From Bacteroidales bacterium (lineage in GTDB: Bacteria > Bacteroidota > Bacteroidia > Bacteroidales > UBA932), in contig JAQXOE010000002.1 in NCBI GenBank assembly GCA_029098505.1, positions 1-64,000 on the forward strand: a DNA stretch of 64,000 bases, written 5' to 3'. The first letter of the stretch is position 1; every line of letters begins with the position of its first letter. The notes under the pieces were generated by a model that was not told the DNA's origin, searched no databases, and saw nothing but the letters and a program-made list of their open reading frames with translations. Made by a program: the position numbers and the translations under genes. Shown here in pieces: positions 34,948 to 34,982 of this stretch.

Positions 34948-34982
34948 TAACATAATTGTTAGGATTGCTAACAATTATGTTA
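34948..34982. repeat. Tandem-palindrome element, copy 4 (TAACATAATTGTTA-ggattgc-TAACAATTATGTTA)
   Basis: Both cores perfect, 21-bp spacing. The two units are also exact reverse complements, so the whole element is a perfect inverted repeat. Confidence 0.85.

What the first reader, a model, noticed from the sequence alone, without database searches (positions are those of the whole stretch)
34948..34982. A six-copy 35-bp tandem-palindrome element with exact 21-bp spacing
A 14-bp palindrome wAACAnnnnTGTTr occurs in pairs whose starts are always exactly 21 bp apart. Copies: 323-357 (mnmE), 29076-29110, 30337-30371 (GH13), 34948-34982, 50388-50422, 55356-55390. Three copies match all 16 core bases, two match 15 and one matches 14, while the n4 and N7 segments vary freely. 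Under uniform base composition a 16-base match is expected about 1e-5 times in 64 kb; AT bias raises that, but not to three perfect copies. Constant spacing with variable linkers suggests two protein dimers on one helical face (two DNA turns). The 5-4-5 half-site layout resembles CRP/FNR-type operators, but occurrence inside housekeeping genes also fits a chromosome-organising or segregation motif. I do not recognise this as a described Bacteroidota motif.
Basis: seen in the sequence. Interest (0 to 1): 0.82.

Follow-up and report, generated by a model that had tools for sequence, protein, structure and literature searches.

The report
Paired palindromes marking the replication terminus
In one group of gut Bacteroidales, a rigid 35-bp DNA element (two palindromes exactly 21 bp apart) sits at a handful of places around the spot where chromosome replication ends, so it looks like a previously unrecognised landing site for a protein that organises the chromosome terminus, as MatP/matS does in E. 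coli, but without MatP.

Summary
All six copies lie at the stated coordinates, with 0 expected in shuffles. The 21-bp spacing is essentially exclusive: 6 of 6 in the window, 13 of 14 in four relatives, 70 of 75 listed exact pairs in about 100 congeners. The whole 2.15-Mb genome has only two more hits. The copies surround a single-copy XerCD dif site found here at 37435-37462. Of 101 exact copies in congeners with dif located, 52 share its contig, at a median 14 kb. Strand skew puts ori at canonical parS and the terminus near dif in one congener, less sharply in a second. Copies recur at orthologous places (mnmE, rarA-upstream, cinA/M19, valS) and near dif in a sister genus; the rest of the order shows background. 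There is no polarity, third unit or promoter preference. MatP is absent from 101 genomes.

Best reading: a terminus-domain site bound by two cooperating dimers of an unidentified protein, working like matS but not homologous to it. Site class well supported; binder and effect inferred.

The parts
323..357 (.). Element copy 1, perfect core, inside the mnmE reading frame (minus strand)
29076..29110 (.). Element copy 2, one mismatch (inner base), between the PFK-family and GH13 genes
30337..30371 (.). Element copy 3, one mismatch (inner base), inside the 3' part of the GH13 gene
34948..34982 (.). Element copy 4, perfect core, between rarA/mgsA and a GNAT-like gene, 2.5 kb from dif
50388..50422 (.). 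Element copy 5, two mismatches (inner bases), between convergent cinA and M19 dipeptidase genes
55356..55390 (.). Element copy 6, perfect core, between valS and tatC
37435..37462 (-). dif, 28 bp: CGTTTATACAA / TTTATA / TTATGTTAAGT; 20 of 28 identical to E. coli dif, XerD arm 10 of 11
   Evidence: found as a conserved intergenic 16-mer shared by congeners, 19-mer present in 80 of 101 congeners, comparison
3..1463 (-). mnmE (runs off the window); element copy 1 lies in the variable loop between its G4 (NKxD) and G5 (SAK) motifs
9686..11113 (+). dnaA, about 27 kb from dif
33599..34918 (-). rarA/mgsA AAA+ ATPase; the element recurs just upstream of it in congeners and in a sister genus
47087..47686 (+). 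XRE/CI-type HTH protein (likely start at residue 49), syntenic about 3-29 kb from dif in congeners; weak binder candidate

Best explanation
The element is a terminus-domain binding site. Each 14-bp palindrome is bound by one dimer of a sequence-specific protein. Two dimers sit two helical turns apart on one face of the DNA and bind cooperatively, which fixes the 21-bp spacing and leaves the linker free. A few such sites (usually 3 to 7 per genome) spread over tens of kilobases to roughly 100 kb either side of dif label the last-replicated region, so that the bound protein can set the terminus apart: for example by holding it together, tethering it to the division site, or unloading SMC complexes there, as MatP does at matS. 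Shown here: the element, its spacing, its location around dif, its conservation by chromosome position, and the absence of MatP. Inferred: that a protein binds it, that two dimers cooperate, and what the bound protein does.
For: Local clustering: 6 of 8 genome-wide hits lie within about 37 kb of dif; binomial probability about 5e-8 under uniform placement. dif identified in this region, one copy in most congeners. 52 of 101 exact copies share the dif contig, median distance 14 kb, 50 of them within 60 kb. In G016 the 4-fold-site TA skew changes sign near dif in the terminus sense and at canonical parS in the origin sense; G120 changes sign in the terminus sense within about 40-80 kb of dif. 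Orthologous placement in many species: mnmE, rarA-upstream, cinA/M19, valS. Sister genus: copy 2.2 kb from dif on a contig over 1.2 Mb, and two copies 20 and 68 kb from dif in another species. The AT-rich element persists near dif in a 62% GC species. In that species mnmE is on another contig and lacks the element. At the rarA site, in loci chosen without regard to the element, it is either present (0-1 mismatch) in 4 of 13 or wholly absent (>=5 mismatches). In the closest relative, core 47/48 identical against 437/531 for linkers plus flanks, Fisher p = 0.002. Exactly two units, no third.
Against: No binding protein has been identified. About half of the exact copies are on contigs without dif, so their distance is unknown. 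One copy in G120 is 202 kb from dif (2 mismatches, may be chance) and one in G016 is on a different contig. Skew is weak in this genus and was uninformative on the short contigs of G092 and G077. About 20 of 101 genomes, mostly incomplete, have no exact pair. Copy numbers are lower than matS in E. coli. No effect on chromosome folding, division or replication has been shown.
Confidence: 0.68

Rival explanations
1. A replication fork barrier: a protein pair bound at the element stops forks, making a fork trap around dif as Tus/Ter does in E. coli or RTP/Ter in Bacillus.
For: Copies flank dif on both sides. Two adjacent dimer sites resemble the two-dimer architecture of RTP-Ter (own knowledge).
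Against: Fork traps need polar sites facing opposite ways on the two sides of dif. The element is symmetric, and the weaker unit faces dif 11 times and away 12 times. Several copies lie within 1.3-5 kb of dif.
Confidence: 0.12
2. Operators of a transcription regulator (CRP/FNR-like or XRE-like) whose regulon happens to lie near the terminus.
For: Tandem 14-bp palindromes are typical of cooperative repressors (own knowledge), and an XRE protein gene is syntenic near dif.
Against: 40% of copies are inside ORFs, 13 of 34 classified intergenic copies are between convergent genes and only 3 between divergent ones. Target genes are unrelated housekeeping genes. The mnmE of G120, which is not on the dif contig, lacks the site. 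The XRE protein is widespread (2366 homologues), whereas the order scan shows only background outside the family.
Confidence: 0.08
3. Binding sites of XerC/XerD themselves (like the sites at which XerD unloads condensin in Bacillus subtilis) or other dif accessory sites.
For: Sites are around dif, and the half-site TGTTA also occurs in the XerD arm of this dif and in the XerC arm of most congeners.
Against: Xer arms are 11 bp with a 6-bp spacer, while here each palindrome has only 4 bp between its AACA and TGTT. The N4 prefers AAAA, not the TTA of the XerD arm. A pair at 21 bp has no counterpart in dif.
Confidence: 0.07

Closest known systems
MatP/matS of Enterobacterales, Pasteurellales and Vibrionales
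   Same: Several dispersed short palindromic sites confined to the terminus region and densest near dif (matS distribution: PMC10945525, read); sites lie in and between ordinary genes.
   Different: Sequence and architecture differ (single 13-bp GTGACRNYGTCAC against two 14-bp palindromes at a fixed 21 bp). MatP is absent in all 101 genomes searched. Fewer sites.
RTP/Ter and Tus/Ter fork traps
   Same: Terminus sites flanking dif; RTP-Ter also uses two adjacent dimers (own knowledge).
   Different: No polarity toward dif.
parS/ParB
   Same: Palindromic chromosomal sites in small number, clustered at one pole of the replication axis.
   Different: Canonical parS is present separately in this genus, at the origin-type skew switch in G016, with a different sequence and on a different contig.
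SlmA/SBS and Noc/NBS
   Same: Palindromic sites for dimeric nucleoid-bound regulators.
   Different: Those sites avoid the terminus (own knowledge); these are confined to it.

Membership tests
MatP/matS | A MatP homologue (Pfam PF06303) in the genome | tested here: not met
   0 of 101 congeners; the control search finds it in E. coli only
MatP/matS | Site consensus GTGACRNYGTCAC | tested here: not met
   Position matrix of 58 elements gives wAACAwwwwTGTTw twice
MatP/matS | Sites confined to the terminus and densest near dif | tested here: met
MatP/matS | Bound protein displaces MukBEF / links terminus to divisome | not testable with these tools
   needs binder, Hi-C or imaging
Tus/Ter or RTP/Ter fork trap | Polar sites oriented oppositely on the two sides of dif | tested here: not met
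   Element symmetric; weaker unit dif-distal 12, dif-proximal 11
Tus/Ter or RTP/Ter fork trap | Tus or RTP homologue present | not tested
parS/ParB | TGTTNCACGTGNAACA near the origin | tested here: not met
   No match in window; real parS is elsewhere in the genome
CRP/FNR-type operators | Located at promoters | tested here: not met
   23 in ORFs, 13 convergent, 18 tandem, 3 divergent, 1 edge
XerCD dif-like or XDS site | 11-bp arms around a 6-bp spacer, XerD arm TTATGTTAA | tested here: inconclusive
   Geometry and N4 preference do not fit, but binding was not assayed

The most novel reading that the evidence does not exclude
Bacteroidota evolved, independently of MatP, a dedicated terminus-organising protein that reads a double-palindrome code around dif as a cooperative dimer-of-dimers, giving a second and unrelated solution to marking the chromosome terminus.
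Probability: 0.55. Interest if true: 0.88.

Novelty: new variant of a known kind. Interest (0 to 1): 0.78.

Why it matters
Sequence-encoded terminus domains are best known from MatP/matS in gammaproteobacteria. A non-homologous site system around dif in abundant gut Bacteroidales would show that marking the terminus arose more than once. It also gives a ready-made bait for finding the protein, and a simple test of whether terminus organisation is a general need of bacterial chromosomes. It supplies a dif site and a terminus marker for a group known mostly from metagenomes, useful for replication-rate estimates.

Tried and rejected
Origin-region reading: dnaA is in the window, so this was the first guess; rejected because skew and parS put the origin elsewhere and dif lies in the window. 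E. coli-like dif pattern search failed; dif was instead found as a shared conserved 16-mer. Third-unit or array idea: no signal at +-21 bp outside the pair. Polarity: none. The XRE gene at 47087-47686 as binder: kept only as a weak candidate, because it is common in Bacteroidales while the element is not. The extra genome hit on contig C37 is in a conserved coding sequence, shared with G024, and is probably chance. Skew in G092 and G077 was uninformative. Rfam and tRNA scans of the window were empty.

Full report
Check of the observation. A scan for AACAN4TGTT-N9-AACAN4TGTT with up to two mismatches returns exactly the six places listed, against none in 100 dinucleotide-preserving shuffles. 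Among half-sites within 60 bp of each other in the window, 21 bp is the only start-to-start spacing (six pairs); in 2.57 Mb fetched from four relatives it is 21 bp thirteen times and 16 bp once. In 101 congeners, with the gap free from 0 to 30 bases, 70 of the 75 distinct places listed have a gap of 9 (tally). A position matrix from 58 elements gives wAACAwwwwTGTTw, N7, wAACAwwwwTGTTw. When a core base varies it is nearly always the inner base of a half-site, A to T or T to A. There is no third unit at +-21 bp.

Where it lies. The window's genome (2.15 Mb, 68 contigs) has only eight matches with up to two mismatches, six of them in this window. The assembly is unnamed; the closest named relative found is a 'Rikenellaceae bacterium' MAG (isolate SUG214) with 97% identical RarA. 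The genus is large and resembles Cryptobacteroides from my own knowledge; that name was not tested.

Terminus or origin. dnaA is in the window, which first suggested the origin. Canonical parS (TGTTCCACGTGGAACA) and ParB are on other contigs. In the eight-contig congener G016, 4-fold-degenerate-site TA skew corrected for gene strand turns from negative to positive at parS, as at an origin, and from positive to negative where the element occurs, as at a terminus. The five-contig congener G120 shows the terminus-type change within about 40-80 kb of its dif. Comparing the regions showed one strongly conserved non-coding 16-mer, which is the core of a dif site: CGTTTATACAA-TTTATA-TTATGTTAAGT at 37435-37462 minus in the window, 20 of 28 identical to E. 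coli dif and 10 of 11 in the XerD arm. Its 19-bp core occurs in 80 of 101 congeners, nearly always once. A published dif survey predicts dif in all 19 Bacteroidetes tested, and dif sites typically lie close to the skew shift-point and terminus (PMC3025954, PMC3091885).

Clustering around dif. Of 115 exact copies transcribed from the searches, 101 are in genomes where dif was located; 52 of these are on the dif contig, at a median of 14.4 kb, and 50 of the 52 are within 60 kb. The remainder are on other contigs of draft assemblies and cannot be placed. In the window's genome, six of eight hits within about 37 kb of dif has a probability near 5e-8 under uniform placement.

Conservation by place. 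Mapping elements of other species onto the window shows recurrent orthologous places: inside mnmE (11 species including this one), just upstream of rarA (about 10), between cinA and the M19 dipeptidase gene (about 10), and beside valS (several). In mnmE the element is always in the same frame, in the variable loop between the G4 and G5 motifs, and reads NxxVxxxNxxV. In G120, where mnmE lies on a different contig from dif, it lacks the element. These loci were selected for carrying the element, so their core conservation is not independent evidence. Two tests without that bias: among 13 loci fetched by RarA alone, four have the element upstream of rarA with 0-1 mismatch and the rest have nothing better than five mismatches; and in the closest relative the cores are 47/48 identical against 437/531 for linkers plus flanks, p = 0.002. 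The sister genus g27 has a copy upstream of rarA 2.2 kb from dif on a contig over 1.2 Mb, and another of its species has copies 20 and 68 kb from dif. Elsewhere in the order (about 390 genomes) only scattered or repetitive matches occur.

What it does. A rigid two-turn spacing with a free linker and exactly two units fits two protein dimers on one face of the helix. Elements are intergenic in 35 of 58 cases, often between convergent genes and rarely between divergent ones, and 23 are inside ORFs, which does not fit promoter operators. The weaker unit faces dif as often as not (11 against 12), which does not fit a polar fork trap. The best-fitting analogue is matS, whose density peaks at dif across gammaproteobacteria and of which three sites over 78 kb already have a measurable effect in E. 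coli (PMC10945525). MatP, however, is absent from all 101 congeners while the control search finds it in E. coli, and the site sequence differs. I therefore file this as working like matS without being a member of that family. The binder is unknown; a syntenic XRE-type HTH protein near dif is a weak candidate, because its family is far more widespread than the element.

Limits. Assemblies are drafts, skew is weak, several result lists were truncated by the tool, and no binding or phenotype was tested.

Noticed in passing
window 9686-11113 and 37435-37462: dnaA lies about 27-30 kb from dif, i.e. in the terminus region, in most of the 31 congeners where both are on one contig; unusual, since dnaA is typically near the origin.
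   Followed up: partly
L260 (G120 C2:70001-90000) around 10456-10522: Two further dif-like sequences about 66 bp apart, some 67 kb from the main dif, which may mark an integrated element that uses Xer recombination.
   Followed up: no
window 47087-47686: XRE/CI-type HTH protein with a conserved C-terminal tail (KIVVFYxDNTFxE), syntenic near dif, belonging to a family with 2366 homologues and no assigned function.
   Followed up: partly
window 323-357 in mnmE: The element is carried inside the MnmE coding sequence in one fixed frame, in the loop between G4 and G5, and encodes NxxVxxxNxxV.
   Followed up: partly
L274, L275 (genomes G283, G177): In another family of the order a near-identical 33-mer AACACCAATGTTTGATGTCGAAACATTGGTGTT occurs four to five times; its conserved linker suggests a different, repeat-like element.
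   Followed up: no
L276, L277 (genomes G253, G486): Short head-to-tail arrays of a 21-bp unit AACATCGATGTTAATCGAGCT in another family.
   Followed up: no
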